Below, piece after piece: positions 1 through 44,161 of a DNA stretch of 44,161 nucleotides (its first letter is position 1; each line of letters begins with the position of its first letter). Source of the DNA: a virus. The translations under genes were made by a program, and so were the position numbers. The stretch is taken from IMG/VR virus record IMGVR_UViG_3300049793_000084, positions 1 to 44,161 of that record. One strand, written 5' to 3'. The notes beneath the pieces were generated by a model. The model saw only the letters and a list, made by a program, of their open reading frames with translations, had not been told where the DNA came from and did not search any database.

Positions 1-127
1 GGTTAACTTCGCTCTGAGATACCAAGCTAAACATGACGGAAAGAACCCCTCTTGGACCTCATATGAGAAACTTCGAAGAGTTATAGAGAGTACAATGTTT
101 AGTAAAACTCAAGACCTTTTGCCTGTA
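1..127. repeat. Left copy of 127-bp terminal overlap
   Basis: These bases are identical to 44035-44161. The overlap lies inside one continuous reading frame (prkA-like), which reads across the junction without a break. An exact 127-base overlap is what a de Bruijn assembler with k=127 leaves on a circular contig, so I read it as an assembly mark of a closed genome rather than a biological terminal repeat. Confidence 0.95.
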
Positions 128-265
128 ATCTCATTTGCTGGACAAGGAAATAAGGACGATAAGAAGAAACACGAGAGCTTCATCGCTAGAATGATAGAAA
201 TAGGATACACGGAAAAACAAACTCGCCGTGTAGTGGACTGGCATTTAAGGGTGATAAACTCATGA
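1..265 (+). CDS. prkA: PrkA-family serine protein kinase / AAA+ protein, C-terminal end
   Basis: This is the 3' end of the gene that starts at 42398; base 1 is the third base of a codon and the frame is open to TGA at 263-265. Joined across the circular junction the protein is 633 residues, close to the roughly 640 of E. coli YeaG. The tail (LLPVISFAGQG, then KKHESFIARMIEIGYT) matches the conserved C-terminal PrkA domain, where E. coli YeaG has LLPVISF followed by a KKHDDF-type segment. The stop overlaps the next start (ATGA at 262). The domain description is given with the 5' part. Confidence 0.93.
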   Translation, partial: VNFALRYQAKHDGKNPSWTSYEKLRRVIESTMFSKTQDLLPVISFAGQGNKDDKKKHESFIARMIEIGYTEKQTRRVVDWHLRVINS

Positions 266-393: not shown

Positions 394-663
394 ATGAGTA
401 TATTCAGCAGTTTATTTAAGACAACAGTTATTGACACAATAGTAGGGTATAACGTTGTTAAGAGACCAGATCCAAGTGAAGCGGGTGATTACTTAGTTAG
501 GATGTACACTAAGTCTTATGTATTTAGTATGGCATGCCCTGATCAAACCTATGATGTCTACAATATAAAACGTGTAACCACTAGAAAAGAAGGTGAAGAG
601 GTTATTGCTGAGATAGAGGAATGGGGCTTTATTGACCCCTCAGATGTGGTACAAAACTTGTAG
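394..663 (+). CDS. Hypothetical protein, 89 aa, between prkA and yeaH
   Basis: The ATG at 394 follows a GGAATCAG ribosome-binding-like stretch. The product is a small mixed alpha/beta protein with a hydrophobic N-terminus (MSIFSSLFKTTVIDTIVG) and an acidic C-terminus; I see no membrane segment long enough to be certain and no known motif. It sits between the kinase and the YeaH-like gene in the same direction, so it probably belongs to the same transcript. In E. coli yeaG and yeaH are adjacent, so this is a phage-specific insertion. Function unknown. Confidence 0.75.
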   Translation: MSIFSSLFKTTVIDTIVGYNVVKRPDPSEAGDYLVRMYTKSYVFSMACPDQTYDVYNIKRVTTRKEGEEVIAEIEEWGFIDPSDVVQNL

Positions 664-691: not shown

Positions 692-1837
692 ATGACTATT
701 ACTGACAAGAGAACTTCAGGTAAGAACAAGTCTGTAGGCAATAGGCAGAAGTTTATTAAGCGATATAAACATCGCATTAAACGCTCTGTAGACAGCATCG
801 CTTCAGATAAAGGCATCACTGATGTCCTTAAAGACCGTAAGATTGTCATTAATAATGACGAGATAGAAGAGCCAAATTTTAATTTTGATTTAACTACAGG
901 GGAACGAGACATTATTCTTCCTGGTAATAGGAGCCTACAGAAAGGAGACAAGATACATAGACCTCCTAAAGATGAAGAAGAAGGAACAGAAGGCAGTGAC
1001 AAGGGAGAAGGCTTAGACGAATTTTCCTTTGTGCTAACTAAAGAGGAGTTTCTTGACCTTTATTTCAGTGATATGGCACTTCCTAGTTTCATTAAAGAGA
1101 GCCTAAAAGGCACCAACAAGTATAAGTTTAAGCGCACGGGATATTCTAAAGACGGTATTCCTCCTCGTCTTGACCTTGTTAAAACGCTTAAGCAAGCAAT
1201 GGCTAGACGTATTGCAACTAAATCTAGTCGCTACTTAGACGACATAGACCTACGATACAAGCATTTCACTAAACAGCCTTACCCTGTACGGCAAGCAGTG
1301 ATGATAATGCTGATGGACGTATCTGGGTCTATGGGTGAATACGAGAAAATGATTGCTAAAAAGTTCTTTCTTCTGCTATACTTATTCTTACATAAGGTGT
1401 ATAAGACAGTGGAGGTGAGATTCGTGTCACACACCCAAGAAGCAAAAGAGGTGGACGAGAAAGAATTTTTCTACGGCAAAGAAACCGGAGGCACCATTAT
1501 TTCAGCGGGACTGAAGAAGGTGAACGAAATTGTTAATGAAGTTGACCTCTCCACTACGAATGTTTACATAGCTCAAGCATCAGACGGGGACAACTGGGGA
1601 GGCGACGAAAACCTAACTGAAAACCTTGTAGTGGAACTTCTAGGAAAGGTTCAGTATTTTGCTTATATACAGACAGAACATCCTGATAGGATTAAGATGA
1701 AAGCTAAATACGGCGTCCAAGATGTGATGAGTATGTACGAGAAAATTGCTGAAGCACACAGGAACCTACAGGCTAGACATGTAGTGTCAGAATCAGAAGT
1801 GTATCCTGTACTGCGATCATTGTTTGAAAAAGATTAA
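692..1837 (+). CDS. yeaH: YeaH/YhbH-family protein (DUF444, von Willebrand A-like)
   Basis: The likely start is ATG 692, just after AAGGAAATAGTA; an in-frame upstream extension to 632 overlaps the previous gene and is not needed. The 381-residue product keeps the DUF444 layout: a basic N-terminus (SGKNKSVGNRQKFIKRYK), an acidic Gly/Glu linker near 95-110, an EYLDL-like segment (KEEFLDLYFSDMALP) and a C-terminal vWA-like fold. The metal-site motif D209-x-S211-x-S213 is present, with T268 in ETGGT and D298 in ASDGD. It is about 45 residues shorter than E. coli YeaH, mainly missing a charged helical insert before the vWA part. The family is co-encoded with PrkA and thought to act with it; the biochemical role is not settled. 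Recognised with high confidence. Confidence 0.93.
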   Translation: MTITDKRTSGKNKSVGNRQKFIKRYKHRIKRSVDSIASDKGITDVLKDRKIVINNDEIEEPNFNFDLTTGERDIILPGNRSLQKGDKIHRPPKDEEEGTEGSDKGEGLDEFSFVLTKEEFLDLYFSDMALPSFIKESLKGTNKYKFKRTGYSKDGIPPRLDLVKTLKQAMARRIATKSSRYLDDIDLRYKHFTKQPYPVRQAVMIMLMDVSGSMGEYEKMIAKKFFLLLYLFLHKVYKTVEVRFVSHTQEAKEVDEKEFFYGKETGGTIISAGLKKVNEIVNEVDLSTTNVYIAQASDGDNWGGDENLTENLVVELLGKVQYFAYIQTEHPDRIKMKAKYGVQDVMSMYEKIAEAHRNLQARHVVSESEVYPVLRSLFEKD

Positions 1838-2040: not shown

Positions 2041-2123
2041 TTGCCTATATAACAATGGTTTTGATATTGTGGACCGCCTTGGTGTGTATAATTATATACG
2101 ACAATAGGGAGAACCTAAAATGA
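2037..2123 (+). CDS. Single-span membrane peptide, 28 aa
   Basis: The start overlaps the upstream stop (ATGA at 2037) and its own stop overlaps the next start (ATGA at 2120), so both ends look translationally coupled. Residues 1-21 form one hydrophobic span (MIAYITMVLILWTALVCIII), followed by a short charged tail (YDNRENLK). The tight overlaps on both sides support it as a real gene despite its size. Function unknown. Confidence 0.55.
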   Translation: MIAYITMVLILWTALVCIIIYDNRENLK

Positions 2124-2899
2124 AACTAGTGTGGGCCAGCGATGTTCATCTAAACTTCTTGAAAGAAGAATCTAGAATAGCTTTCTATCAGTCTATCAAA
2201 GGGGACGCTCTGGTTCTAAGCGGAGACATCGCAGAAAGCCACAATGTTGTTAAGATGATAGGTGAGGCGGAGAAGCACACTTCTCTTCCTATCTATTTCG
2301 TATTAGGCAATCACGATTTCTATGGGTCTAGCGCTGCTGCTGTTAAGAGCTCGGTGAGACCCTTAGGGTGGCTACCTAAAAACAACGGAGTGCGCCTGAG
2401 CCCCTCTACAATCCTCTTAGGAGTGGACGGATGGGGAGACTGTCGCAGCGGGGACTTCGAGAACAGTCGATTAGTTATGAATGACTGGATATACATCGAA
2501 GAACTTAGGAAAGGATACTCTAAAGGAATGAATCGTCTTAAGAAAGCCCTTCAAGTTTTAGCAGACAGAGATGCTAGAGCACTTAAGACAAAAGTTAACA
2601 ATGCAATAAAGAAGGGATACACAAAGGTTATCATAGTTACACACGTCCCTCCCTTCGAAGAAGTGTCTTTGTATGCTGGACGAAAAAGCACGCCTAGTGG
2701 ACTCCCTTTCTTTGTGTCTAAAATATTAGGTGAATCTATACTCCCTATAGCTAAAGCTCAACCAAAGATTGACTTTTTGTGGTTAAGCGGCCATACTCAT
2801 AGTAGAGCAAAGTATAAGCCATGTAATAACATGACAGTTAAAGTAGCAAAAGCAGAATATTGTAGTCCACAGGTTGAGGAGATAATAAATGTGGAGTAA
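2120..2899 (+). CDS. Calcineurin-like metallophosphoesterase (copy 1)
   Basis: The 259-residue protein has the full metallophosphoesterase motif series: D8-x-H10 (SDVH), GD at 35-36, GNHD at 63-66, the TH of THVPP at 174-175, and GHTH at 224-227. The active site would hold two metal ions and cleave phosphoester bonds; the substrate cannot be read from sequence (nucleotide, nucleic acid or phosphoprotein are all possible). It lies between the yeaH-like and spoVR-like genes, overlapping membrane-peptide genes at both ends. Placement next to a protein kinase makes a phosphatase role tempting, but that is inference. It is not close to the second phosphoesterase at 7094. Confidence 0.9.
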   Translation: MKLVWASDVHLNFLKEESRIAFYQSIKGDALVLSGDIAESHNVVKMIGEAEKHTSLPIYFVLGNHDFYGSSAAAVKSSVRPLGWLPKNNGVRLSPSTILLGVDGWGDCRSGDFENSRLVMNDWIYIEELRKGYSKGMNRLKKALQVLADRDARALKTKVNNAIKKGYTKVIIVTHVPPFEEVSLYAGRKSTPSGLPFFVSKILGESILPIAKAQPKIDFLWLSGHTHSRAKYKPCNNMTVKVAKAEYCSPQVEEIINVE

Positions 2900-3035
2900 A
2901 CTGAAAAACACATTGGTTGTAACTATCTCGTCTATAGTGATTTCTCTTGGTGTAATACTGATTGGAGTTATTTGTGTTGTGCTTTCTATCTCTATTATTC
3001 CTGTGTTAAGTTTCATACTAGGAGTCCATCAATGA
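2889..3035 (+). CDS. Hydrophobic membrane peptide, 48 aa
   Basis: ATG 2889 overlaps the end of the phosphoesterase gene and the TGA overlaps the SpoVR-like start (AATGA at 3032). The protein is almost entirely hydrophobic from residue 8 to 45, with a basic N-terminus (MWSKLK), which suggests one long span or a two-helix hairpin with a tight turn. No Cys pair or known motif. It is the third very small membrane or exported protein in the PrkA-YeaH-SpoVR block. Function unknown. Confidence 0.6.
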   Translation: MWSKLKNTLVVTISSIVISLGVILIGVICVVLSISIIPVLSFILGVHQ

Positions 3036-4510
3036 ACAAGCCAATGTTTACAGGAAGTGAATGGGACATGGACATGCTACATTCTATGTGGAAGACAATA
3101 GACGATGTAGGCAAGAACACATTTGGACTAGATTATTATGAACCCCAAATAGAAATTATTTCCAGTGAACAAATGCTAGATGCCTACTCTTCTGTGGCCA
3201 TGCCAGTTATGTATTCTCATTGGAGTTTCGGCAAGACATTCATACAGAACGAAAGACAATACGCTAAAGGCATGCAGGGGCTCGCCTACGAGGTTGTAAT
3301 CAACACTAACCCCTGTATAGCCTATTTGATGGAAAACAACACAGCGACGCTCCAGGCCCTTGTATTGGCACATGCCAGCTGTGGACACAGTCATTTCTTT
3401 AAGAACAACTATCTATTTAAGAACTGGACAGAAGCCGACTCCATTATTGAATACTTGAAGTTTGCTAAGAAGTTTATTAAAAGCTGTGAAGAAAAATATG
3501 GAGAGAAACGAGTAGAGAAACTGTTAGATGCGTGCCATAGTTTACAGAATCATGGATTCGATAAATATAAGAAGCCCTCCAAGCTCTCCACAGAATTAAA
3601 GTTTCAACGAAAGAAACAATGGGAAAACTATTTTGAAAATACATTCAATGACTTATGGCGCACTGTCCCGAGAATTCCAGAGGGAAAACCCGAAGAATAC
3701 AAAGACGCCTCCTTTCCAGAAGAGAACATATTATACTTCTTAGAAAAGAATAGCCCTATATTAGAAGACTGGGAAAGAGAAATTGTCAGAATAGTGAGAA
3801 AGATTGCTCAGTATTTTTATCCTCAACGACAAACGCAACTGCTTAACGAAGGGTTTGCTACATTCACCCACCATATGATAATGACTGAACTACATGACCA
3901 GGGCCACTTAACTGACGGGGCGTACATAGAGTTTCTTACGAACCACGCAGGTGTTATTGCCCAGCAGTCATGGGAAAGCAAACACTACAGGGGCATTAAT
4001 GTATACGCATTAGGCTTCGCTATGCTTATGGACATAAAGAGGATGTGCCTCGAGCCAGACGACGAAGACAGGAAGTGGTTCCCTGAACTAGAAGGAGCAG
4101 ATTGGCTAGCCACTATTAAGTATATTGTAGAGAATTACAGGGACGAAAGCTTTGTGCTCCAATACCTGTCCCCTAAGGTGGCAAGACGATTCAAACTATT
4201 TTCTATCCACGTTAAAGAAAAGACCCCTTATTTAAAAGTTAATGCTACACACGATGAGGAATCGTTCTTACACATCAGAAAAGCGTTAGCTGAAATGTAT
4301 GATTTAAGTAGGAATATTCCTCAAATAGAGGTGGTTGGAGTGGACTGGAAAGATGATAGATGGCTGTACCTTGAGCACATAACTAAGGACAATCAACGAT
4401 TAGAATATTACGACATGAGAAAAACTGTGCAGTACATAAGAGACTTATGGGGATTTACCGTGAAGATGGAATATGTAGACTTAGACGGAAAACCTCTTGA
4501 TGATGTTTAG
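3032..4510 (+). CDS. spoVR: SpoVR / YcgB family protein
   Basis: Start chosen at ATG 3032 after TAGGAGTCCATCA; the 492-residue length fits the family (about 500). Conserved blocks are all present in order: YYEPQIEIISSEQMLDAYSS near 35-54, HWSFGK near 63-68, GLAYEVVINTNPCIAYLMEN near 83-102, the His-rich HASCGHSHFFKNNYLF at 114-129, LYFLEKNSP near 234-242, YFYPQRQTQLLNEGFATF near 261-278, and INVYALGFAM. The H-x4-H and NEG(F/W)AT blocks look like a metal-binding, metalloprotease-like core, but no activity is established for the family. SpoVR co-occurs with PrkA and YeaH across bacteria; B. subtilis SpoVR affects spore cortex formation. Here all three sit in one cluster. Confidence 0.95.
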   Translation: MNKPMFTGSEWDMDMLHSMWKTIDDVGKNTFGLDYYEPQIEIISSEQMLDAYSSVAMPVMYSHWSFGKTFIQNERQYAKGMQGLAYEVVINTNPCIAYLMENNTATLQALVLAHASCGHSHFFKNNYLFKNWTEADSIIEYLKFAKKFIKSCEEKYGEKRVEKLLDACHSLQNHGFDKYKKPSKLSTELKFQRKKQWENYFENTFNDLWRTVPRIPEGKPEEYKDASFPEENILYFLEKNSPILEDWEREIVRIVRKIAQYFYPQRQTQLLNEGFATFTHHMIMTELHDQGHLTDGAYIEFLTNHAGVIAQQSWESKHYRGINVYALGFAMLMDIKRMCLEPDDEDRKWFPELEGADWLATIKYIVENYRDESFVLQYLSPKVARRFKLFSIHVKEKTPYLKVNATHDEESFLHIRKALAEMYDLSRNIPQIEVVGVDWKDDRWLYLEHITKDNQRLEYYDMRKTVQYIRDLWGFTVKMEYVDLDGKPLDDV

Positions 4511-4591: not shown

Positions 4592-4792
4592 ATGCCAATA
4601 CATGAGTATGAATGTTCTAAAGGGTGCCCACCTTGGGAAGAAATACAGAAGATGGGCGATAAGCCTAAAAGTGTATGTCCTACATGTAATAAGAAGACAG
4701 CTAAGCGTCTTATAAGCACAGGCGGTTTTATACTGAAAGGCAGAGGGTTTCATAGGCCTTCTAGGCAGGAGAGTGACAATGAAATTAATTAA
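4592..4792 (+). CDS. FmdB-like zinc-ribbon protein
   Basis: The 66-residue protein opens MPIHEYECSKGCPPWEEIQKM and ends with a Gly-rich segment (ISTGGFILKGRGFHR), the pattern of the FmdB_ssd zinc-ribbon family (typically MPxYEYxC then CPxC then GFxLKGxGWY). Four cysteines, C8, C12, C29 and C32 (the last two in CPTC), could bind zinc. Family members are small putative regulators, often next to enzymes. The stop at 4792 overlaps the start of the aminopeptidase gene, so the two are probably co-translated. Confidence 0.8.
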   Translation: MPIHEYECSKGCPPWEEIQKMGDKPKSVCPTCNKKTAKRLISTGGFILKGRGFHRPSRQESDNEIN

Positions 4793-5645
4793 AGAGCTGG
4801 GGCTTATGCCCCCTAATAAGCTAACGCCCATAGAACTGGCCAACTACTTCCAAGAAAAAGAGTTTGCCTCCACCAGTCCTAATTTAGTTGGACTAAAGAC
4901 TGTAGGAGGAAGTAAAGCTTGGCTGGGCCACTCTAAGGTGGGACGAGGAACAACGTCAATGAAAATCGCCATAGTGGGCAAGGGAATAACGTTCGACGCA
5001 GGAGGCATCTCTATAAAGCCCGCTAAGAACATGCATGAAATGAAAATGGACATGTTAGGAGCAGCCACTGTGTTAGCATTAGCGAAGCCTCTAAGTAAGT
5101 TAGAAGGCACCTTTCATCTATATGGATGCTGTGCTGAGAATACGTTCCATCACGACAGTATGCGACCTGGCGACGTAATCACCTATCAAGACGGCACTAC
5201 GGTGGAGATTATAGACACAGATGCGGAAGGACGCCTTGTCTTAGCAGATGGTATACTCGAGGCTAAGAAGCATTCTCCTGATTTTATAATAACGATAGCA
5301 ACCCTCACAGGAGCAGCTCGAGCCGCTTTAGGCGAAGGCACCGCACTGTTTAGTAATAGAAAGTTGAATGCAAAGATGTTCCTAATTGCAGCAGAGCAGT
5401 GTAACGAAGAAGTGTGGGAGATGCCTATCTGGGAGCAACACAGAAAAAACATTAAGGGACAGAAAGGTGTCTCTGACATAAAGAACTTAGGTACGATAGC
5501 AGGAGCGTCCACAGCAGCAGCTTTCCTTGAACACTTTGTGGGAGATGTTCCGTGGATACACTTAGATATTGCAGGAAGTGCGTATAAAGACGGAGTGCCG
5601 ACAGGGGCTATGTATAAAACTCTAAGAAAATACTTAGGAGATTAA
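4779..5645 (+). CDS. M17 leucyl-aminopeptidase-like catalytic domain
   Basis: Start taken at ATG 4779, 7 bases after AGGAG, rather than GTG 4773. The 288-residue protein contains the whole M17 di-metal active site: K68 and D73 in GKGITFDAGG, K80 in ISIKP, D91 in MDMLGAA, and D148, E150, R152 in DTDAEGRL. M17 aminopeptidases remove N-terminal residues from peptides in the cytoplasm, usually as hexamers. Cellular enzymes are about 500 residues with an N-terminal domain of some 150-190 residues; here only about 60 residues precede the catalytic core, so the N-terminal domain is missing. All catalytic residues remain, so it is probably active rather than a relic. Rare in phages to my knowledge. 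Confidence 0.92.
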   Translation: MKLIKELGLMPPNKLTPIELANYFQEKEFASTSPNLVGLKTVGGSKAWLGHSKVGRGTTSMKIAIVGKGITFDAGGISIKPAKNMHEMKMDMLGAATVLALAKPLSKLEGTFHLYGCCAENTFHHDSMRPGDVITYQDGTTVEIIDTDAEGRLVLADGILEAKKHSPDFIITIATLTGAARAALGEGTALFSNRKLNAKMFLIAAEQCNEEVWEMPIWEQHRKNIKGQKGVSDIKNLGTIAGASTAAAFLEHFVGDVPWIHLDIAGSAYKDGVPTGAMYKTLRKYLGD

Positions 5646-7093: not shown

Positions 7094-7870
7094 ATGACAG
7101 TTCGCCACTTGTTTATTCCAGATGTTCAAGCCAAAGAGGGAGTTCCTACCGAGCATTTGAGCTGGATAGGGAACTACATAGTGGATAAGAAGCCGGAGGT
7201 AATTATCCAAATAGGAGACTTTGCAGACATGCCCAGCATGTCCTCCTACGATAAAGGCAACAAATCATTTGAAGGGAGGAGATACAAGAAAGACATTAAA
7301 GCTGCGAAGGAAGCGATGGATACACTATTAGGTCCTCTTCGAAGGTATAACCAAAAGCAACGACAACTCAAGCACGCACAATATAAGCCACGAATGGTGC
7401 TGACGCTAGGTAACCACGAAGAGCGAATAGCACGTGCTGTAGAGGCTCAGGCGGAGCTAGAAGGCGTTATAGGATATCACGACCTTCCTTATGAAGACTG
7501 GGAGGTGCATGACTATTTAAAACCTGTGGTCATAGATGGAGTGATGTACGTGCACTATCTGTCTAATCCTATGTCTGGAAAACCTTATGGAGGAACCTCC
7601 TTAAATCAATTAAATAAGGTGCAGCATAGTTTCTGTGTGGGACACAAACAAACACTGGATGTGGCAACTTATTTCACTCCTCTAGGTAAACAAACGTGGG
7701 GGATAATAGCAGGGGCTTGCTACCTTCACGATGAAGAATATAAAGGCTACCAAGGAAATGCTCACTTTAGAGGTGTTATAATGCTAAATGATGTAAAAGG
7801 CGGGACATTTAGTCCTTGGTTTATCCCACTTGACTATCTGCGAAGTAGATATGAGGAGGGTCATATATGA
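7094..7870 (+). CDS. Phage-type metallophosphoesterase (copy 2)
   Basis: The 258-residue protein carries PDVQ (metal D/Q position), GDFAD, GNHEER, a late VGHKQ, and a GACYLHDEEY segment, the arrangement seen in phage metallophosphoesterases in which some His ligands are changed from the classical DxH/GHTH form. The start ATG 7094 follows AAAGGGGAGATTTAA. It would hydrolyse a phosphoester in the cytoplasm; substrate unknown. Its motifs differ from those of the phosphoesterase at 2120, so the two are separate acquisitions rather than a recent duplication. Confidence 0.87.
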   Translation: MTVRHLFIPDVQAKEGVPTEHLSWIGNYIVDKKPEVIIQIGDFADMPSMSSYDKGNKSFEGRRYKKDIKAAKEAMDTLLGPLRRYNQKQRQLKHAQYKPRMVLTLGNHEERIARAVEAQAELEGVIGYHDLPYEDWEVHDYLKPVVIDGVMYVHYLSNPMSGKPYGGTSLNQLNKVQHSFCVGHKQTLDVATYFTPLGKQTWGIIAGACYLHDEEYKGYQGNAHFRGVIMLNDVKGGTFSPWFIPLDYLRSRYEEGHI

Positions 7871-8067
7871 GACTTATAATAACTGATAGCGGAAACGAAC
7901 CCCAGGTGGAGTTGTATCTCCAGTACGGATCAGATGGAAGCGTCATATTAAGGGCAAAGCAAGACACTATAGATCAATCAATATTAACAGTGTGTCCAAA
8001 TGGACACGCAAGCACTTCAATTAACAACATAATATTTTGGAGAAACGACCGTGAAGACAAGCAATAA
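7867..8067 (+). CDS. Hypothetical protein, 66 aa
   Basis: It overlaps the phosphoesterase stop (ATGA at 7867) and runs into the start of the endolysin. The sequence is beta-rich with a central SDGSVILRAKQDT stretch. No family recognised. Confidence 0.65.
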   Translation: MRLIITDSGNEPQVELYLQYGSDGSVILRAKQDTIDQSILTVCPNGHASTSINNIIFWRNDREDKQ

Positions 8068-8725
8068 AGGGTTGGTCGAATTGGTGGGCCACGAAGGGAT
8101 AGCACTCAGTAAGTATAAAGACAGTGTAGGTGTGTGGACCGTTGGAATAGGCGCTACAGTGTCTGAGATATCAGACATAGCGTCTTGGCCGTTGTCTAAG
8201 ACAATAACTATTCAGGAAGCGTTCGATTTGTTAGCTAAAGGGATAGTTAAATATGAGAACGAACTTAATAAATATATAACTAAACAAATCCCTCAATATC
8301 AGTTTGACGCTCTAGTTAGTTGGTGTTATAACGTAGGGGTGGGATGGGTGAAGAAAGCCTCTGTGATTAAACTAATCAACCAAGGAGCTAGTGCTGGACA
8401 GCTATACGACGCATTGATGTTATATAGAAGCCCTCCAGAAGTTATAGGACGAAGAACTAAAGAGGCAAGACTATTAGCTTATGGGGCGTACAGTAATGGA
8501 GGAAAAGCTACGTTGTTCCCAGTGTCCAGTAAGGGCTTTCCTATGTACGCTAAAGGGACAGAGATAAACGTGTGGGAACACATAGCAGTTAGCTCTGAAG
8601 TGGCCCCTCTTGTACCTATTGTCGCTAAAGCAGATGAGAAAGCAGTAGCTGTGAAACCTTCTAGTGGAACCACGTTAACCAACCTAGTGTCAACCATCTC
8701 TTCTCTCCTGGGGTTCTCTCAGTGA
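8051..8725 (+). CDS. Endolysin, glycoside hydrolase family 24 lysozyme
   Basis: GTG start at 8051 after TTGGAGAAACGACC. The N-terminal 150 residues are a T4/P22-type lysozyme: the catalytic triad spacing E-x8-D-x5-T is exact (E15 in HEG, D24 in YKDSVG, T30 in VWTVGIG), followed by FDALVSWCYNVGVG and a GRRTKEARLLAYG segment near residue 140. It cleaves the glycan strands of peptidoglycan. The last 75 or so residues are Ala/Val/Ser-rich and end in a hydrophobic LVSTISSLLGF stretch. There is no N-terminal signal or anchor, so export would need the holin. It is the last gene of the plus arm, on the opposite transcription unit from the holin at 32038. Confidence 0.9.
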   Translation: MKTSNKGLVELVGHEGIALSKYKDSVGVWTVGIGATVSEISDIASWPLSKTITIQEAFDLLAKGIVKYENELNKYITKQIPQYQFDALVSWCYNVGVGWVKKASVIKLINQGASAGQLYDALMLYRSPPEVIGRRTKEARLLAYGAYSNGGKATLFPVSSKGFPMYAKGTEINVWEHIAVSSEVAPLVPIVAKADEKAVAVKPSSGTTLTNLVSTISSLLGFSQ

Positions 8726-29202: not shown

Positions 29203-30693
29203 TTAGTATCCCGTTAATGAATCTATGTCGTGTGATTCTCTATGGTTGTCATAAGGGTTTATGTCAGCCATCTCCATATCATAGTGCGATACGGCAATCA
29301 TTTCGAATATAGACAGTAAATATCTTAGTGTATCTAGTAGGTGGTCGTCTTGATTTCTTGCGATTTTGTTTGGGTCTTTGGAGTCATATCTGTAAACTCT
29401 ATACTCGTCAAAGAATGCATCTAAATTGGAAAATATCTTAAGCGTACCTGCTTCCAATTCTGTATAAACTTGACCGATCCCTGTTACAATACTGTTATAT
29501 CCAGGATGTAAGTCTAGACCTAAACTACGATAATAGTCGATTCGCATCTTACCGTCGTCTCGTCTACCTCCTCCTGAAGGGTCAGCGGCTCCTGACATCC
29601 AATTACCACGTTGCTGTATAGCGAATACGTGTTGCTGGTCGGTAACTTTTCCTTTTTTATATTCTGAATAGACGTATTTAATTTGTGTCACTGGGTCTTG
29701 TGCCATCCATAAGGCTGCAGTGTTATTCCATCCAAAGTCCAATCCGTAAGCTCTGGGGAAGTATTCAGGAATCTCGAATGGTTTAACCTTAATGTCTTCT
29801 TCAGCCACTGGGTATACTCGTCCTGAACCTAAAGCTGGAATACCCTTCGTTCGAGCATCCCTTTCATTTGGGGGCATTTCAGCTATCATTGTTGCCTTAT
29901 CTTCTTCAGTTAAATGCGGAGCATCGTCCCATGAAATAGCTATGGCATATCTTTCTGGATGTTCTGGGTGTGTTCCCTCTGTAGGGAATCGTCCATTAGG
30001 CAAATACCGCAATACAACCTCACTGAGGCCTTTTAACGGGGTGAACATCATCATACACTTACCTGGTTCTTTAACGCCTTTAACCCCCCTTAAACGGGCT
30101 ATACACTCAGAGTAAATTTCATCTGGCGGCTCTTCATCAAATATGATGAGGTCTAAGGTGGCTGCTTGGAACTGATTGCGTCCCATCTCGAATGTCTTAA
30201 CTGTTACTGAACTAACTCCGCCACTCTTATGTTTTGTCTGTATCTGACCGATTGCTCCTGGAACTCCAGGCATGCTCTTTGTGTCATGTAACATGTCTTT
30301 TCTAATTAGACCGGTTCCCAGTTCTTCACCTGGTGAGCCTAACAGGGAAGACTGCATGGAATCTCTCCATAAGCTCCCTGACTCACATATAACCCACACC
30401 TTAATGGCTTTCTTAAACTTCGTTCCTTTCCACCAGGTCGGGTATTCTCCTGTCATGTGGTATGTGAGCTCTACGCTCCCACTGAAACTCTTACCTGAAC
30501 CATTTCCTCCTCCTAGTACGCGAAACCTGTGGTTAAGGCCTGCATCGAAGAAGTCTACGTGTTTGTGATAAAGGGCTCGTGCAAAAGGTCCGGTGTCTGG
30601 AAATACTGAATCTATTAAGTTATATTTCTTGTGTTCAGTAAAGGATTGGACTGCACGAGCAATATTTAGGAGTTTATGTCTATCAAGTGTCAT
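29203..30693 (-). CDS. terL: Terminase large subunit
   Basis: The 496-residue protein has a Walker A LGGGNGSGKS at 60-69, Walker B LIIFDEEPPDE near residue 185 with the catalytic Glu, and an RNase H-like nuclease domain with YGLDFGWNNTAALW near 315 and a late DDHLLDTLRYLLS. The motor pumps DNA into the procapsid through the portal and the nuclease cuts it. It lies between the secreted-protease gene and the small gene before portal. Confidence 0.95.
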   Translation of the reverse strand: MTLDRHKLLNIARAVQSFTEHKKYNLIDSVFPDTGPFARALYHKHVDFFDAGLNHRFRVLGGGNGSGKSFSGSVELTYHMTGEYPTWWKGTKFKKAIKVWVICESGSLWRDSMQSSLLGSPGEELGTGLIRKDMLHDTKSMPGVPGAIGQIQTKHKSGGVSSVTVKTFEMGRNQFQAATLDLIIFDEEPPDEIYSECIARLRGVKGVKEPGKCMMMFTPLKGLSEVVLRYLPNGRFPTEGTHPEHPERYAIAISWDDAPHLTEEDKATMIAEMPPNERDARTKGIPALGSGRVYPVAEEDIKVKPFEIPEYFPRAYGLDFGWNNTAALWMAQDPVTQIKYVYSEYKKGKVTDQQHVFAIQQRGNWMSGAADPSGGGRRDDGKMRIDYYRSLGLDLHPGYNSIVTGIGQVYTELEAGTLKIFSNLDAFFDEYRVYRYDSKDPNKIARNQDDHLLDTLRYLLSIFEMIAVSHYDMEMADINPYDNHRESHDIDSLTGY

Positions 30694-34649: not shown

Positions 34650-34804
34650 AAGCATACACTACGTGGCAAGAAGCATTGGTGAGGTTTATAGAGCTATATG
34701 GACATAACTACAAAGACAGTTACAACTTAACAGCAGAGTTCGAACAGCATCTAACTAAGAACAGATTGGGTGTTTACTTTTTGCGAACTGGAGAACTTAA
34801 ATGA
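34646..34804 (+). CDS. Hypothetical protein, 52 aa
   Basis: Overlaps the previous stop and the next start (both ATGA). Soluble, aromatic (MKAYTTWQEALVRFIELYGHNYKDSY), no known motif. Likely co-translated with the repeat protein that follows. Confidence 0.55.
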   Translation: MKAYTTWQEALVRFIELYGHNYKDSYNLTAEFEQHLTKNRLGVYFLRTGELK

Positions 34805-36280: not shown

Positions 36281-36433
36281 ATGGACGTAGTGAGCTTTAT
36301 AGACGATCTTGATGAGCTATTATTTAATGAACATATACATCTTAACACGTACGAACTAGAGGCCATATTAGACAGAATTGATATGTTACATACTGTTATT
36401 TTGAAAAAGCTAACTCCAGGAGAAATAAAATGA
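36281..36433 (+). CDS. Hypothetical protein, 50 aa
   Basis: ATG 36281 after AAGGAGAAACTAA. Acidic and helical (MDVVSFIDDLDELLFNEHI). Its stop overlaps the ATPase start (ATGA at 36430), so it may be a partner or regulator of the ATPase. No family recognised. Confidence 0.55.
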   Translation: MDVVSFIDDLDELLFNEHIHLNTYELEAILDRIDMLHTVILKKLTPGEIK

Positions 36434-38588: not shown

Positions 38589-40553
38589 ATGAGTGATATC
38601 GCAATCGACTTTGAGACACATCTCATAGGTAACGAAGCAGTGTTCCCAAAGCCAGTGTGCCTCTCAGCCTATACAGGTTCAGAGGCTTTTTTATTTAATA
38701 ACGATGAAGCCAGAAAGTTTTTAGCAGAACACTTAAACGTAGACATTCTTATAGCACACAACGCAGTGTTTGAATGTGGCGTTATTATAACGCACTATCC
38801 TGAATTAGCAGAGAAGGTGTTTGCTGCACTGGATAATGGCTTAATATATTGTACTAAAGTGAATGAAGCACTGTGGAACATCCAAAGAGAAAAGGCAATG
38901 ATGAAACTAACTCTTGCCGATTTAGTGCAACATTATTTCGATACAGACATCAGTGCAACAAAGACTGCTGATGCATGGCGACTAAGATATTCTGAACTGG
39001 ATGGTATTCCAATTAGTGAATGGCCTAAAGAAGCAGTTGAGTATGCCATAGATGATTCTATATGGGCATATAAAACTAAGCAAAAGCAAAAATACATAAA
39101 TCAGCAGTTAGCTTTAAAGTCAGCTGTATTTCTTAACATAATGGGGGCAACAGGATTCTCTATAGACAACGAAAGGGTTTTATTATTAGAGAAAGAAATC
39201 TGGGAATACCTCACTCCGAGATATGACTTTTTAGTGAAAGAAGGATTCTGTGATTATATAGCTAGACAAAAACAGCCTAGAAAGCAAATTAAGAAGCTGA
39301 AAGCCTATGTCGAAGACTTAGGTGTCACCCTACAGTATACAACTAAAGGTGGTGTAGCGACGTCAGGAGAGGCCATATCGGCCTATTTAACAGAACAACC
39401 AAACCCAGTTTTGCAGGCATTCTCGGAATTATCTAGATATGAAAAAATCCTCACTTCATATGTATCTCGACTTAAAAGTGCAAAGAAGATTTACTCTCAA
39501 TATTCCACAACTAAAAATACGGGACGAACTTCTTCAAGTGCCTCAAAGCTGTTTGACAGCATTAATATTCAACAGATTCCACGTGCCGTTGAAGGGGTTT
39601 CGTACGACGTGCGAAATTGTTTCGTTCCTAGAGAAGGGTTTAAGGTTTGTTCTATTGACTATAGTGGACTGGAGTTATGCTCTGCAGCACATCAGTTATT
39701 TACCACCTTGAAATATTCTTGCATGAGAGACGCATTGAACGAAGGAGATAAGCCTACAGACATGCATTCCAAGTTAGCAGCTAAGCTTAAGGGAATCTCA
39801 TATGAAGAATTCATGGAACATAAAAGTGAATATAAAGACGCTAGACAGAAAGCTAAGCCAATTAACTTAGGGTTTCCAGGAGGCATCGGATATGACACTA
39901 TGCGTCACCTTATGTGGAAAGACGGAATTAAAACAAGATTTGAAATATTAGAAACCTCTAAGAATAAACAAGATCTCAACTATTATTTATTTAACTTACA
40001 TGCCCCTGATGTAAGGATTAAGCGTTTAAACAAATCAGAATACGCTTTGGTGCAAGACGAGCTTGTACTGCTTAAGAGATATATGTTTGAACTATACCCA
40101 GAGTTAGAACAGTTCTTGAAAGAAACTCACTTGAAATTTTTAACAGGCAAGATGAAGTTTAAGAAGAATGAGTTTGATGAATGGGAAGAAGAGCCCATGT
40201 ACATGTATGATACTCATGGATTTAAACGCGACTGGTGTACATACACAGCTTTATGTAATGGCTTCTTAATGCAAACCCCTTCAGCTGTTGGAGCCCAGAA
40301 AGCAGTCAATAAAGTGTGTAGAGAATTTTATAGCGAACCAGACATTATTCCACAATCGTTCATCCACGACGAAATAGTTTTTGAAGTGAGAGAAGGTAGG
40401 TATGACTTAGTGGAACGAGCGGCGTATATAATGATAGAAGAAATGCAAACAGTTTTATCCTCAGTGAGGATAGCAGTGGAGGCAAGCATTTCTGACTACT
40501 GGCAAAAGGCAGACGGTTTTTGGACTAAAAGTTTCTGGAGAAACCCTAAATGA
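38589..40553 (+). CDS. Family A DNA polymerase with 3'-5' exonuclease
   Basis: The 654-residue protein has exonuclease motifs D7-x-E9 (AIDFET), LIAHNAVFE near 54-62 and YAIDDSIWAYK near 156-166, and the polymerase signatures SIDYSGLELCSAAH (motif A), KDARQKAKPINLGFPGGIGYD (motif B: R-x3-K-x6-F-x-G) and SFIHDEIVFEV (motif C, HDE). It is the phage replicative polymerase, T7-type in size but without the T7 fold certainty. GGGGAACAC precedes ATG 38589. It sits immediately after the candidate ncRNA. No phage primase or helicase gene is visible nearby. Confidence 0.95.
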   Translation: MSDIAIDFETHLIGNEAVFPKPVCLSAYTGSEAFLFNNDEARKFLAEHLNVDILIAHNAVFECGVIITHYPELAEKVFAALDNGLIYCTKVNEALWNIQREKAMMKLTLADLVQHYFDTDISATKTADAWRLRYSELDGIPISEWPKEAVEYAIDDSIWAYKTKQKQKYINQQLALKSAVFLNIMGATGFSIDNERVLLLEKEIWEYLTPRYDFLVKEGFCDYIARQKQPRKQIKKLKAYVEDLGVTLQYTTKGGVATSGEAISAYLTEQPNPVLQAFSELSRYEKILTSYVSRLKSAKKIYSQYSTTKNTGRTSSSASKLFDSINIQQIPRAVEGVSYDVRNCFVPREGFKVCSIDYSGLELCSAAHQLFTTLKYSCMRDALNEGDKPTDMHSKLAAKLKGISYEEFMEHKSEYKDARQKAKPINLGFPGGIGYDTMRHLMWKDGIKTRFEILETSKNKQDLNYYLFNLHAPDVRIKRLNKSEYALVQDELVLLKRYMFELYPELEQFLKETHLKFLTGKMKFKKNEFDEWEEEPMYMYDTHGFKRDWCTYTALCNGFLMQTPSAVGAQKAVNKVCREFYSEPDIIPQSFIHDEIVFEVREGRYDLVERAAYIMIEEMQTVLSSVRIAVEASISDYWQKADGFWTKSFWRNPK

Positions 40554-40818: not shown

Positions 40819-41457
40819 ATGAAATATATAGTTAAGACAGAAGAAAAGTGGCTAGAACTGCGCAAGCAGTTCATCACAGCGTCACAAGCTGCGGTCTTAG
40901 TGGGGGCCGACCCGTATGCTAGCCCATCTTCCATTACGAACCCAACCCCTTTTTTCGGGAATGCATTCACAAGAGTGGGCCAAGTGCTAGAGCCAGTGGT
41001 GGTGTCTGTAGTGAATGACGTACTAGGAACAACCTTTAAGCTATTTGAGAACAAAGAAGGACACAAAGAATTCTTCACAGAAGGCTATTTGGGGGCCACT
41101 CCTGATGCTCACCAAGACCGTAAGGTGTTACTGGAATGTAAAACTACGCGACCTAAAACGTATATTAAGTATTCAGGAGTGCCTCCTAGTAAGTACTTGA
41201 TTCAACTTTTAGTTCAAATGATGTGTACAAAAGCTAAGAAAGGCTATCTGGCTATAATGAGTACAGACTTAACACAACAAACTGCTGAATTAAATTGGCC
41301 AATAACTATATATAAAGTGTGGCGCGATGATCGAATATGTGATATACTTAAAACAGAAGCAGAAAGATTCAGAAGTGAAAAGGCGTTTAGGGTTAACTCC
41401 AAGGTGAAGCAGAAGGTAAAACTGTTATTAACTTTGTGTTACGAGAGGATAATATGA
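40819..41457 (+). CDS. YqaJ-like/lambda-exonuclease-type recombinase nuclease
   Basis: The 212-residue protein has the N-terminal EEKWLELRKQFITASQAAVLVGADPY segment typical of YqaJ-like viral recombinases, then a PD-(D/E)xK pattern: EGYLGATPDAHQDRKVLLECKTTRP (catalytic D, then E-x-K). Probably degrades one DNA strand at double-stranded ends, for recombination or host DNA breakdown. I see no obvious annealing partner other than the ssDNA-binding protein. AAAAGGGTATAT precedes ATG 40819. Confidence 0.88.
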   Translation: MKYIVKTEEKWLELRKQFITASQAAVLVGADPYASPSSITNPTPFFGNAFTRVGQVLEPVVVSVVNDVLGTTFKLFENKEGHKEFFTEGYLGATPDAHQDRKVLLECKTTRPKTYIKYSGVPPSKYLIQLLVQMMCTKAKKGYLAIMSTDLTQQTAELNWPITIYKVWRDDRICDILKTEAERFRSEKAFRVNSKVKQKVKLLLTLCYERII

Positions 41458-42146: not shown

Positions 42147-42405
42147 ACGACATAGTATAATAGAAGCTTGCTCAAACGTATTTAGCGGAATGGTGATTGC
42201 TTTTGTTATATCTCAGTTGGCGCATATGTATTCACCAGAGATTAGACAGTATATATGGAAGGGTTTTGAGTGGAAGGTAAGCGTAGGAAGTAATGCAGTA
42301 ATGACAGTTATACTGACAGTGATTTCCATAGTAAGAGGCTATTTGTGGAGAAGACATTTCAATAGGGTGCAAGAACAAAACTATAAAGGGGAAAACAATG
42401 GCTAA
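42136..42405 (+). CDS. Two-span phage membrane protein
   Basis: The 89-residue protein has a basic start (MQSKRHSIIEACSNVFSGMVIAFVISQLAHMY) and two membrane spans, then a basic VRGYLWRRHFNRVQEQ end. The pattern K/R-x-S-x-x-E-x-x-x-N-x-x-x-G-x-x-x-A/S with a terminal (R)SY-x-x-RRxFNR is that of a family of small phage membrane proteins. Overlaps the start of prkA by 8 bases in another frame, so coupling is likely. Confidence 0.7.
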   Translation: MQSKRHSIIEACSNVFSGMVIAFVISQLAHMYSPEIRQYIWKGFEWKVSVGSNAVMTVILTVISIVRGYLWRRHFNRVQEQNYKGENNG

Positions 42406-44161
42406 TTTATTTCAGCTAGGTACATACGAGACAGAACTGATGTCGTTAGAGGCGTACACGAAGTTAGCACAAAAAGACCCCTCTGTGTATGCATCACCTG
42501 CTCACCGAATGTTAAAAGCAATCGGGGAACCGAAGAAAGTGGACACAGCGAAAACACCTCGTCTCAGCAGAATATTTGGTAATAGAACAATCAGAACTTA
42601 TGAGGTCTTTTCTGACTTTTATGGATTAGAAGACGTCATCAGTAGAATAGTTTCGTTCTTCCAACATGCTGCCCAAAACCTGGAAGAATCCAGACAGATT
42701 CTATACCTTCTAGGACCTGTTGGCTCCGCTAAATCATCGTTAGTGGAATGCTTAAAATCTCTTATGGAGAAAGAACCAATCTATATATTAGCAGATGCTG
42801 ACGGAAACCCTAGTCCTATTAATGAAAGTCCATTAGGTGTGTGTGGTAAAGAACTGTTAGCTAAACTGAAAATTAAATCAGTGCCTGTAATTCCGAGTCC
42901 GTGGGCTACAAAACGACTTAAGGAATACAAAGGAGACCTATCTAAGTTTAACGTAATCAAACGCCATCCTGCTCAGTTGGAACAAGTGGCGCTAGCTAAA
43001 GTGGAGCCAGGCGATGAGAACAATCAGGACATCTCAGCTCTTGTAGGTAAGGTGGACATCAGGAAATTAGAGCATTTTAACCAAAACGACGCTGATGCGT
43101 ACAGCTATTCAGGCGGATTGTGTCTAGCCAATCAAGGCATGTTAGAATTCGTGGAAATGTTTAAAGCACCAATTAAGATGCTCCATCCGTTACTGACGGC
43201 AACACAGGAAAGAAACTACAAAGGAACAGAAGCGATCTCAGCTATCCCGTTCCAAGGCATCATCGTAGCTCACAGTAACGAATCTGAGTGGGATACATTC
43301 AAGAACAACAAGAACAACGAAGCGTTCCTCGATAGGGTTTACTCAGTGGAAGTGCCTTATTGTCTACAAGTGACTGAAGAGCAAAAGATTTATAAGAAGC
43401 TTCTTAACAGCAGTACGCTTAGTGAAGCTCCTACCGCTCCATACACCTTAGAGCTGCTATCTCAGTTCAGCGTGCTAACACGACTAGAAGAGCCAGAAAA
43501 CTCTAGTGTTGTATCTAAGATGCGCGTATATGACGGAGAGAACGTAAAAGAAAAAGATACTCAAGCCAAAAGCTATCAAGAGTACAAAGATGCCACTACA
43601 GCTAATGAAGGGTTCTTCGGAATATCCACACGACTAGCATACAAGGTTCTTGCTGAAGTGTACAACTTTGACCACGATGAGATAGCAGCAGACCCTGTTC
43701 ACTTACTGTATGTACTGGAAAAAACCATACAGAAAGGCAGACTGCCAAAAGAAGTTGAAGAGAAATATCTAGACTACATTAAAGAATATCTGGTTCCTTA
43801 TTATGCAACTAAAGTGGGTAAAGACATTCAGACTGCATACCTAGATTCCTATCAAGAATTCGGGCAGTCACTGTTTGACAGATACATAATGTTTGCGGAC
43901 CACTGGGTGCAAGATAATGACTACAGAGACGTGGACACTGGACAGATGTTTGACCGAGAGTCTTTAAACAAAGAACTAGAAAAGATAGAAAAGCCAGCAG
44001 AGATAGCCAACCCTAAAGACTTTAGACACGAGGTGGTTAACTTCGCTCTGAGATACCAAGCTAAACATGACGGAAAGAACCCCTCTTGGACCTCATATGA
44101 GAAACTTCGAAGAGTTATAGAGAGTACAATGTTTAGTAAAACTCAAGACCTTTTGCCTGTA
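42398..44161 (+). CDS. prkA: PrkA-family serine protein kinase / AAA+ protein (YeaG-like), N-terminal 588 residues
   Basis: ATG 42398 after AAAGGGGAAAACA; the gene is open to the window edge and continues at base 1, total 633 residues. The N-terminal AAA domain has a Walker A GPVGSAKSS at 106-114 (the E. coli protein has GPVGGGKSS) and conserved blocks: SPWATKRLKEYKGDLSKF, KTEPGDENNQDISALVGKVDIRKLEHF-like, MEFVEMFKAPIKMLHPLLTATQE, SNESEWDTFKNNKNNEAFLDRVY, and RLEEPENSSVVSKMRVYDGE. The second half is the C-terminal PrkA domain (DRYIMFADHWVQDNDYRDVDTGQMFDRESLN). It was described as a serine kinase; AAA+/protease-like activity has also been proposed for the family. It heads the cluster with YeaH and SpoVR. 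Confidence 0.96.
   Translation, partial: MANLFQLGTYETELMSLEAYTKLAQKDPSVYASPAHRMLKAIGEPKKVDTAKTPRLSRIFGNRTIRTYEVFSDFYGLEDVISRIVSFFQHAAQNLEESRQILYLLGPVGSAKSSLVECLKSLMEKEPIYILADADGNPSPINESPLGVCGKELLAKLKIKSVPVIPSPWATKRLKEYKGDLSKFNVIKRHPAQLEQVALAKVEPGDENNQDISALVGKVDIRKLEHFNQNDADAYSYSGGLCLANQGMLEFVEMFKAPIKMLHPLLTATQERNYKGTEAISAIPFQGIIVAHSNESEWDTFKNNKNNEAFLDRVYSVEVPYCLQVTEEQKIYKKLLNSSTLSEAPTAPYTLELLSQFSVLTRLEEPENSSVVSKMRVYDGENVKEKDTQAKSYQEYKDATTANEGFFGISTRLAYKVLAEVYNFDHDEIAADPVHLLYVLEKTIQKGRLPKEVEEKYLDYIKEYLVPYYATKVGKDIQTAYLDSYQEFGQSLFDRYIMFADHWVQDNDYRDVDTGQMFDRESLNKELEKIEKPAEIANPKDFRHEVVNFALRYQAKHDGKNPSWTSYEKLRRVIESTMFSKTQDLLPV
44035..44161. repeat. Right copy of 127-bp terminal overlap
   Basis: Exact copy of 1-127. 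It places the end of the window back at the start and closes the genome as a 44,034-bp circle. Confidence 0.95.

What the first reader, a model, noticed from the sequence alone, without database searches (positions are those of the whole stretch)
42398..44161. A lytic-type podovirus carries PrkA (YeaG), the first part of a complete PrkA-YeaH-SpoVR stress triad
Seen: prkA (42398 to 265 through the junction), yeaH (692-1837) and spoVR (3032-4510) are full-length, in order and in one direction, with the signature motifs intact. Known: PrkA, DUF444/YeaH and SpoVR/YcgB are co-encoded in many bacteria, are RpoS-linked in E. coli, and yeaGH acts in long nitrogen starvation. Inference: the phage uses the triad to modify host stress or dormancy so it can replicate in slow-growing cells, or to block such a programme. 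I know of no described phage system built on all three genes together.
Basis: partly seen in the sequence, partly recalled or inferred. Interest (0 to 1): 0.93.

Follow-up and report, generated by a model that had tools for sequence, protein, structure and literature searches.

The report
Phage-borne PrkA-YeaH-SpoVR stress gene trio
A small bacterial virus carries an intact set of three genes that bacteria use to survive starvation and stress, and the same three genes travel together in many other, mostly uncultured, viruses, so viruses appear to have adopted this poorly understood stress machine as a unit.

Summary
The window is a circularly permuted phage contig (exact 127-bp end repeat); read over the junction, prkA is 633 aa, and yeaH and spoVR are full-length, in the same order and strand, motifs intact. 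It is no host chimera: related contigs share the terminase and the gene neighbourhood, and PrkA ranks first or second in conservation in six comparisons. Trees of the three proteins each recover the same 12-member phage clade apart from the sampled bacteria, with correlated distances. The triad is common: 75 of the 80 best SpoVR-bearing viral loci hold all three in order. 'Unknown in phages' is too strong: phiYS40, phiLo, Lalka8 and huge-phage records carry it, though I found no paper treating it as a phage system. Likely mechanism: a AAA+ motor (PrkA) with a VWA/MIDAS adaptor (YeaH) acting on or through SpoVR, possibly a glutamate-less gluzincin-like metalloprotein, to tune host stress or quiescence. 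Presence and co-inheritance are shown; complex, timing and benefit are inferred.

The parts
42398..44161 (+). prkA (yeaG homologue), first 588 codons; continues at 128-265 after the 127-bp end repeat, 633 aa in all
   Evidence: Walker A GPVGSAKSS at residue 106, lysine K416 aligned with YeaG K426
128..265 (+). prkA, last 45 codons and stop
   Evidence: frame 2..265 open at the 5' end
1..127 (.). terminal direct repeat, identical to 44035-44161; probably the assembly overlap that closes the circle
394..663 (+). small ORF (89 aa) between prkA and yeaH, no family match, no match in the fetched parts of six TerL-bearing relatives
692..1837 (+). yeaH (DUF444), 381 aa, VWA/MIDAS domain in the C-terminal half
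   Evidence: five MIDAS residues in 105 of 105 rows
2120..2899 (+). metallophosphoesterase between yeaH and spoVR; at the same place in some relatives, not found in others
3032..4510 (+). spoVR (ycgB homologue), 492 aa, possibly gluzincin-like predicted fold
4773..5645 (+). neighbour: M17 leucyl-aminopeptidase catalytic domain, sporadic in relatives
38589..40553 (+). neighbour upstream: family A DNA polymerase with 3'-5' exonuclease, syntenic with the triad in relatives
40819..41457 (+). neighbour upstream: YqaJ/RecE-type exonuclease, syntenic in relatives
7094..7870 (+). neighbour downstream: second metallophosphoesterase (phrog_221), conserved in the close group
8051..8725 (+). endolysin (phage lysozyme), last recognised gene of the + strand block
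29203..30693 (-). terminase large subunit, used to show that triad and phage genes travel together

Best explanation
The phage carries its own, vertically inherited copy of the bacterial PrkA-YeaH-SpoVR machine. Proposed working: PrkA forms an AAA+ ATPase ring; YeaH, whose C-terminal half is a von Willebrand A domain with an intact MIDAS metal site, is its adaptor, in the manner of MoxR/NorQ-type ATPases with their VWA partners; SpoVR is the metal-site protein on which, or through which, the pair acts. The three are encoded on the replication-side strand between polymerase/exonuclease genes and the endolysin, so they are probably made before or with replication, and they set the host's stress or quiescence state (metabolic brake, envelope and starvation tolerance) to one in which the phage can finish its cycle. 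Shown here: gene integrity, motif conservation, co-inheritance, phage residence, wide spread as a three-gene unit. Inferred: the physical complex, the timing, SpoVR's metal, and the benefit to the phage.
For: Families and motifs. Phage residence: window TerL on 8 of 48 triad contigs tested, six at 69-79% identity; conserved order polymerase, exonuclease, prkA, yeaH, spoVR; PrkA ranks 1, 2, 1, 1, 1, 1 in identity among 30, 24, 24, 22, 6 and 11 compared genes. Unit behaviour: 75 of 80 SpoVR-anchored and 66 of 80 PrkA-anchored viral loci show PrkA-YeaH-SpoVR in order, 2 more with split frames; the 5 and 12 loci lacking a gene run into a contig end, except L056 (1822 bases upstream) and L106; 107 viral contigs hold a full-length triad (83+18+6; some may be the same virus assembled twice); no other gene cluster recurs beside the triad in more than 9 of 69 loci. 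Joint history: same 12-row clade in all three trees (SH-aLRT 100, 99, 98); Mantel r 0.82, 0.88, 0.87, 0 of 2000 permutations as high, 71 viral rows. Machine: YeaH's model matches VWA domains, among them Rea1/Mdn1 MIDAS and NorD in the NorQD complex (E 9.5e-6; Z 15.4 for Rea1). SpoVR's model: VIA-align rows are led by two putative lipoproteins of unknown function (Z 12.7, 11.0), then M1 and M3 peptidases (Z about 10 to 8) and ACE-type chains (about 7), with invariant H..GH and NEGxA. Bacterial biology: YeaG and YeaH act together as a metabolic brake in nitrogen-starved E. coli, and yeaG(K426A) no longer gives the recovery lag (PMC10954441, passages).
Against: I found no expression, interaction or phenotype data for any phage copy. 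Only PrkA is outstandingly conserved: in the four closest relatives SpoVR ranks 10 of 30, 10 of 24 and 5 of 24 (not rankable in the fourth) and YeaH 12 of 30, 15 of 24, 7 of 24 and 15 of 22. Phages 39-47% like it in TerL mostly lack the triad: 10 of 12 such contigs of 30 kb or more from the TerL scan (contigs may be fragments), so it is probably not essential for that type of phage. SpoVR of relative G021 has a stop before its last domain and L110/L111 have split yeaH and spoVR frames. In phiYS40 and Lalka8 the triad lies near terminase or portal genes, which would fit a packaging role. SpoVR's gluzincin likeness rests on one predicted model (mean pLDDT 79.9; residues 55-74 and 79-84 below 50); Foldseek alone gave nothing significant in the PDB, and the tool warns that mostly helical models without a true relative reach a best Z near 14. 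Purified B. anthracis PrkA showed no kinase and negligible protease activity (PMC13001217, passages), so a motor activity is not demonstrated. B. subtilis SpoVR was reported to bind RNA (PMC12456014, passages), which this model does not explain.
Confidence: 0.45

Rival explanations
1. The triad serves the particle rather than the host: a AAA+/VWA assembly machine used in head maturation, packaging or ejection.
For: In Lalka8 the genes sit between portal/minor head and TerL; in phiYS40 they lie about 1.2 kb from TerL, which is on the other strand.
Against: In the window group the triad lies in the replication-side block, on the strand opposite to the head and tail genes recognised; no neighbour cluster of any kind is shared by more than 9 of 69 loci; bacteria keep the same triad; most more distant relatives of this phage do without it.
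Confidence: 0.12
2. The triad is a counter-defence or superinfection-exclusion cassette: the AAA+/VWA/SpoVR machine disarms a host defence, or the phage copy competes with the host's own complex so that the host cannot enter an anti-phage dormancy.
For: Module found in very different phages and patchy among the wider relatives; YeaG represses two toxin-antitoxin modules in E. coli (PMC4664914, abstract).
Against: Catalytic-type motifs are conserved rather than lost, which speaks against a dominant-negative copy; PrkA is as conserved as capsid and terminase or more so, unlike typical fast-evolving anti-defence genes (recalled); no direct evidence. PADLOC was not searched.
Confidence: 0.25
3. 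It is a passively acquired host operon or an assembly chimera without a function for the phage.
For: The usual order and the overlapping YeaH-SpoVR junction (median gap -4) equal the bacterial ones, so the unit probably came from bacteria. Some viral entries look like host DNA: LAU1, L106 with the same gene lengths and nearly the same scores as LAU1, L107 and L136 inside the bacterial clade.
Against: Six contigs share TerL at 69-79% and the gene order recurs; PrkA is among the most conserved proteins; the phage clade is separate from the bacteria sampled.
Confidence: 0.03
4. The proteins keep separate activities (PrkA kinase, SpoVR RNA binding) and act as independent effectors, with no shared machine.
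For: Literature names PrkA/YeaG a kinase; B. subtilis SpoVR binds RNA; in Salmonella yeaH but not yeaG was linked to antimicrobial-peptide resistance.
Against: Co-occurrence and correlated evolution of all three; no kinase activity found in purified B. anthracis PrkA.
Confidence: 0.15

Closest known systems
Bacterial prkA-yeaH-spoVR genes (E. coli yeaGH plus ycgB; B. subtilis prkA, yhbH, spoVR; gene names recalled)
   Same: Same three families, same order and overlapping yeaH-spoVR junction in most bacterial loci fetched (66 of 80 with the order); same motifs. The YcgB-YeaH-YeaG triplet was noted as co-conserved in bacteria (PMC2375023, passages).
   Different: The window's proteins form their own phage clade; YeaH of the window group is mostly shorter (376-409 aa, one member 426, against about 417 or more in most others), the window lacking about 45 residues before the VWA domain; extra genes inserted; phage genome context.
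Thermus phages phiYS40, phiLo, Lalka8 (and TMA, MN1 and others with PrkA and YeaH matches)
   Same: Isolated phages; in phiYS40, phiLo and Lalka8 all three genes lie within about 4 to 6 kb. For TMA, MN1 and the remaining Thermus phages only PrkA and YeaH were found by tblastn.
   Different: Only about 22-32% identical; order YeaH-SpoVR-PrkA; lysine 416 of PrkA is aspartate in the two Thermus rows tested (phiLo, Lalka8) and in LR756511.
Huge phages (LR756502, LR745206, LR756504, LR756511) and jumbo phage RsoM2USA
   Same: PrkA 59-62% and SpoVR 46-51% identical to the window in the first three, about 26% in LR756511; order PrkA-YeaH-SpoVR in LR745206, LR756504 and LR756511; RsoM2USA is reported with SpoVR and PrkA two ORFs apart and a metallophosphoesterase nearby.
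   Different: Genomes about 8 to 15 times larger; in LR756502 prkA and yeaH lie about 240 kb from spoVR; RsoM2USA's ORF29 could not be read here.
MoxR-type ATPase plus VWA systems (NorQ-NorD, RavA-ViaA, CbbQ-CbbO) and Rea1
   Same: AAA+ ATPase encoded with a VWA-MIDAS partner; YeaH scores over the cut-off for VWA_CoxE and its model matches NorD and Rea1.
   Different: PrkA is its own AAA+ family; its match to the MoxR-like model bpMoxR is below the cut-off (20.9 against 27 bits); a SpoVR partner is not part of those systems (recalled).
Gluzincin metallopeptidases (M1, M3, M49)
   Same: Structural likeness of the SpoVR model, a NEGxA motif (171 of 176 sequences) like that of M1 peptidases, and an H-x-x-x-G-H motif like M49's HExxGH (peptidase motifs recalled).
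   Different: The catalytic glutamate position is Ala 162, Val 7, Cys 1 in the 170 of 176 sequences matched; the other six each contain an HAxxGH string.

Membership tests
PrkA (PF08298 + PF06798) | Both domains over the curated cut-offs, Walker A intact, full length | tested here: met
   508.2 and 170.8 bits against 25; GPVGSAKSS; 633 aa
PrkA (PF08298 + PF06798) | Sequence relative with a solved structure | tested here: met
   9xip/9xiq/9xir 'Serine protein kinase', E 4.7e-48 over residues 74-585
PrkA (PF08298 + PF06798) | ATPase, kinase or protease activity | not testable with these tools
   needs protein
YeaH/DUF444 (PF04285) | Family score and complete MIDAS | tested here: met
   397.6 bits against 27; D209, S211, S213, T268, D298 in 105 of 105 rows
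SpoVR (PF04293 + PF24755) | Family scores and full length | tested here: met
   505.9 and 55.5 bits against 27 and 27.6; 492 aa
Bacterial-type prkA-yeaH-spoVR operon | Three genes, same strand and order | tested here: met
   order as in 66 of 80 bacterial loci
Bacterial-type prkA-yeaH-spoVR operon | Directly adjacent genes with overlapping yeaH-spoVR junction | tested here: not met
   a small ORF and a metallophosphoesterase lie between yeaH and spoVR here; the median gap elsewhere is -4
Bacterial-type prkA-yeaH-spoVR operon | Stress or quiescence function | not testable with these tools
   needs phage or complementation experiments
MoxR/VWA chaperone systems | AAA+ of the MoxR family | tested here: inconclusive
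   bpMoxR 20.9 bits, below its cut-off of 27
MoxR/VWA chaperone systems | VWA-MIDAS partner | tested here: met
   VWA_CoxE 31.5 bits against 26.4; NorD and Rea1 matches
Gluzincin metallopeptidase | Fold | tested here: inconclusive
   VIA-align: putative lipoproteins Z 12.7 and 11.0, LTA4H 10.2, other M1/M3 about 10 to 8, within the range that helical models can reach by chance; no significant Foldseek hit in the PDB
Gluzincin metallopeptidase | HExxH (or HExxGH) with catalytic Glu | tested here: not met
   Ala, Val or Cys at that position in 170 of 170 matched of 176; HAxxGH strings in the other six
Podovirus | Head-closure and DNA-ejection genes of short-tailed phages | tested here: met
   Hc3 E 6e-88 and DNA ejection E 1e-5; stabilisation-protein hits. 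That these mark short tails is recalled
Podovirus | No tape measure, sheath or tail tube | tested here: inconclusive
   none named among the ORFs scanned; several structural-side ORFs have no family, and one has a weak 'baseplate wedge' match, E 3e-5

The most novel reading that the evidence does not exclude
Tailed phages of very different size and kind have repeatedly kept one three-protein machine as an autonomous, co-evolving module: a AAA+ motor, a VWA adaptor and a glutamate-less gluzincin. Its job is to hold the infected cell in a controlled quiescent state. The phage copies, including ones with putative inteins placed in the SpoVR NEGxA site, would be the most tractable route to the unknown biochemistry of PrkA-YeaH-SpoVR.
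Probability: 0.35. Interest if true: 0.78.

Novelty: new variant of a known kind. Interest (0 to 1): 0.62.

Why it matters
The bacterial triad is widespread and stress-linked, and the papers seen here give it no agreed biochemical activity. A compact phage version that is inherited as a unit, with PrkA among the best conserved proteins of its genome, and that occurs in about a hundred viral contigs (107 with full-length triads), turns 'what do these three proteins do together' into a testable question. It also suggests that many phages steer the host's starvation state directly. The weak points of the original claim (chimera, chance, host contamination) are removed; the claim of being the first phage with the triad is not upheld, because phage records that carry it, phiYS40 among them, are already in the public collection.

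Tried and rejected
Rejected: assembly chimera with host DNA. Rejected as support: Enterobacter phage LAU1, whose yeaGH lies at the record's end, and L106, L107, L136, which look host-like. One bacterial record (L191, Parvularcula) falls among phage rows; not pursued.

Led nowhere: SpoVR, TerL and polymerase scans with single sequences found few contigs (2, 11 and 2 loci); Rfam, no match at gathering scores; tRNA, none; promoter and terminator scans not clearly above shuffles; Pfam at a loose threshold lists no peptidase family among the 25 shown for 48 SpoVR sequences; no PDB sequence relative of SpoVR below E 0.17 or of YeaH; BFVD gave one significant SpoVR match, A0A3Q8HYQ4. Papers: SpoVR with PrkA and phage, 5 papers, of which I read passages of two; YS40 with SpoVR, none; SpoVR with phage genome and kinase, RsoM2USA alone; SpoVR, 53 papers, 40 listed, passages of a few read; DUF444 with phage, 6 papers, not opened except passages of PMC12804078 and PMC5764234, the latter a false match to DUF4445; PrkA with auxiliary metabolic genes, none; Thermus phage terms, nothing relevant among the 10 of 56 listed.

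Rows dropped and choices: the trees use 105 of 176 complete triads (175 loci plus the window); 27 second loci of the same contig and all loci without three full-length genes were set aside before, near-identical PrkA after. phiYS40's SpoVR fell below the profile threshold and LR756502's triad is split, so neither is in the trees. One search used 71 viral rows, leaving out bacteria, three divergent and two host-like rows; its permutations ignore relatedness, so the p value is not exact. Searches covered 48 and 50 of about 130 triad contigs, the latter chosen mostly for length. In one search, 23 of 50 records match phrog_2, 17 strongly (E below 1e-26) and 6 weakly; phrog_2 also rings in 11 of 14 control genomes, so alone it does not prove a virus. 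The label 'j' (TerL found) on L063 is a slip of mine: one search found TerL on L065's record, not on L063's; it changes labels only. L104's record was added by hand to and is not in the 12-contig count.
Full report
What is there. The window is a virus record of 44161 bases whose first and last 127 bases are identical, so it closes to a circle of 44034 bases. Three genes follow each other on the + strand over the junction: prkA (42398-44161 then 128-265, 633 aa), yeaH (692-1837, 381 aa) and spoVR (3032-4510, 492 aa). All score far above the Pfam cut-offs for their families. Together they take 4527 bases, about a tenth of the genome. PHROGs already holds a phage cluster for each, marked 'unknown function' (phrog_22605, 19072, 35217).

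Is it a phage? The - strand block carries homologues of TerL, TerS, portal, major head protein (weak, E 1e-4), head-closure Hc3, DNA ejection, tail fibre and a holin; the + strand block carries a family A polymerase, a YqaJ/RecE-type exonuclease, an ssDNA-binding protein and an endolysin. Hc3 matches 185 phage records, 16 of the 20 listed being annotated as stabilisation protein or Hc3; the best-ranked TerL hits, among them EBPR podovirus 1, are 36-40% identical. A podovirus is the best reading. No integrase was recognised in the 50 proteins scanned with PHROGs.

Is it a chimera? No. Of 48 triad-bearing viral contigs tested, 8 also hold a relative of this TerL, six at 69-79% identity. In these and further relatives the order polymerase, exonuclease, prkA, yeaH, spoVR, second metallophosphoesterase recurs, while the metallophosphoesterase between yeaH and spoVR and the M17 peptidase come and go. 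In six relatives PrkA is the first, second, first, first, first and first most conserved gene among 30, 24, 24, 22, 6 and 11 compared; SpoVR and YeaH are mid-ranking in the four close relatives (SpoVR 10, 10 and 5, unrankable in the fourth; YeaH 12, 15, 7 and 15) and second and third in the two distant ones. Five of five contigs of at least 30 kb with TerL at 69% or more carry prkA, and four carry spoVR (the fifth ends 194 bases after yeaH); of twelve such contigs with TerL at 39-47% from the same scan, two carry both. So the triad looks like a fixed trait of the close group and is patchy beyond it.

How common is it? Profile scans of IMG/VR found 153 SpoVR and 275 PrkA relatives; the best 80 of each were read. 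All three genes lie in the order PrkA-YeaH-SpoVR on one strand in 75 of 80 and 66 of 80 (two more have split frames); the rest, save L056 and L106, are cut by a contig end. After removing second loci of the same contig, 107 viral contigs have full-length triads; some may be one virus assembled twice. Ten of the contigs with the triad exceed 200 kb. Besides the TerL relatives, 17 of 50 triad records searched have a strong terminase match. Among up to three genes before and four after the triad, no cluster is shared by more than 9 of 69 loci: the unit is these three genes.

Do they share a history? The same 12-row clade (window, L013, L014, L015, L093, L096, L099 to L104) appears in the PrkA, YeaH and SpoVR trees with SH-aLRT 100, 99 and 98, and 28 of 29 bacterial rows fall in a different clade, with two or three viral rows (that clade has support 91, 85 and 99). 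Distances among 71 viral rows correlate at 0.82, 0.88 and 0.87; none of 2000 permutations came near. These are quick trees with limited bacterial sampling; they show joint inheritance, not the direction or number of transfers.

How might it work? PrkA keeps Walker A and the lysine aligned with YeaG K426 in 102 of 105 rows; the other three, phiLo, Lalka8 and LR756511, have aspartate. In E. coli, yeaG(K426A) no longer gave the recovery lag, and YeaG with YeaH was described as a metabolic brake (PMC10954441, passages). Purified B. anthracis PrkA was classed, from a model, as a clade III AAA+ protein, without kinase and with negligible protease activity (PMC13001217, passages). YeaH's MIDAS is invariant and its model is a VWA domain matching, among many, Rea1 and NorD, which are parts or partners of AAA+ machines. 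For SpoVR's model, VIA-align's rows are led by two putative lipoproteins of unknown function and then by M1 and M3 peptidases; the scores lie in a range that helical models can reach without kinship, and Foldseek found nothing significant in the PDB. H114, G118, H119, E273, G274 and A276 are unchanged in 35 sequences from the window to Thermus phages. The residue that should be the catalytic glutamate is Ala, Val or Cys in 170 of 170 matched sequences of 176, and the other six contain HAxxGH. I therefore propose a AAA+/VWA motor acting on or through a metal-site protein that is not an ordinary protease. Two SpoVR genes carry in-frame inserts beginning with Cys and ending in Asn directly at the NEGxA motif (L099, 289 aa; L004, 129 aa); L004 shows a weak intein signal (E 0.0095, below the cut-off) and L099 none, so these are putative inteins. 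L082 and L090 have an N-terminal insert with weak Hint and LAGLIDADG matches. Inteins favour conserved active sites (recalled), which would fit a functional NEG site.

What the phage gains is inference. Host-state control fits the bacterial phenotypes: a starvation brake, and sensitivity to antimicrobial peptides reported for yeaH (but not yeaG) in Salmonella and, as unpublished data, for ycgB (PMC2375023, passages). Particle assembly is suggested by phiYS40 and Lalka8, where the genes lie near terminase or portal. Counter-defence cannot be excluded.

What is new. Phage records with the triad exist (phiYS40, phiLo, Lalka8, huge phages), and jumbo phage RsoM2USA is reported with SpoVR and PrkA (PMC8504454, passages). 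I found no paper in the open-access library that treats the three as a phage system; most subscription papers and preprints were not searchable, the original phiYS40 paper was not seen, and not every listed paper was opened. The contribution is the small-phage variant, the evidence that it is a stable, co-inherited and widespread module, and the tentative glutamate-less gluzincin reading of SpoVR.

Noticed in passing
L099:12981-15395, L004:8962-10869, L082:9086-11344: Phage SpoVR genes with large in-frame inserts: two (289 and 129 aa, starting Cys, ending Asn before a Cys) lie exactly at the NEGxA motif, one near the N-terminus with weak Hint/LAGLIDADG matches; putative inteins.
   Followed up: partly
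window 692-1837: The window's YeaH lacks about 45 residues before the VWA domain compared with five other YeaH proteins, and most of its group is similarly short.
   Followed up: partly
window 4773-5645: Phage-encoded M17 leucyl-aminopeptidase catalytic domain next to spoVR, present in some relatives and with no PHROG match.
   Followed up: no
window 2120-2899 and 7094-7870: Two different metallophosphoesterases flank spoVR; RsoM2USA also lists one near its SpoVR and PrkA.
   Followed up: no
window 34801-35742: Beta-solenoid (YdcK-type repeat) protein near the start of the + strand block; role unknown.
   Followed up: no
window 36430-37272: A separate AAA ATPase upstream of the polymerase, matched in three of the six relatives compared.
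   Followed up: no
L191: A Parvularcula genome contig whose three proteins group with phage rows rather than with the other bacteria.
   Followed up: no
L010:7644-8561: Bacillus phage CM1 has a YeaH-like 'sporulation protein' with no PrkA or SpoVR match in the phage searches.
   Followed up: no
LR756502.1: This huge phage has prkA-yeaH and spoVR about 240 kb apart, a broken-up triad.
   Followed up: no
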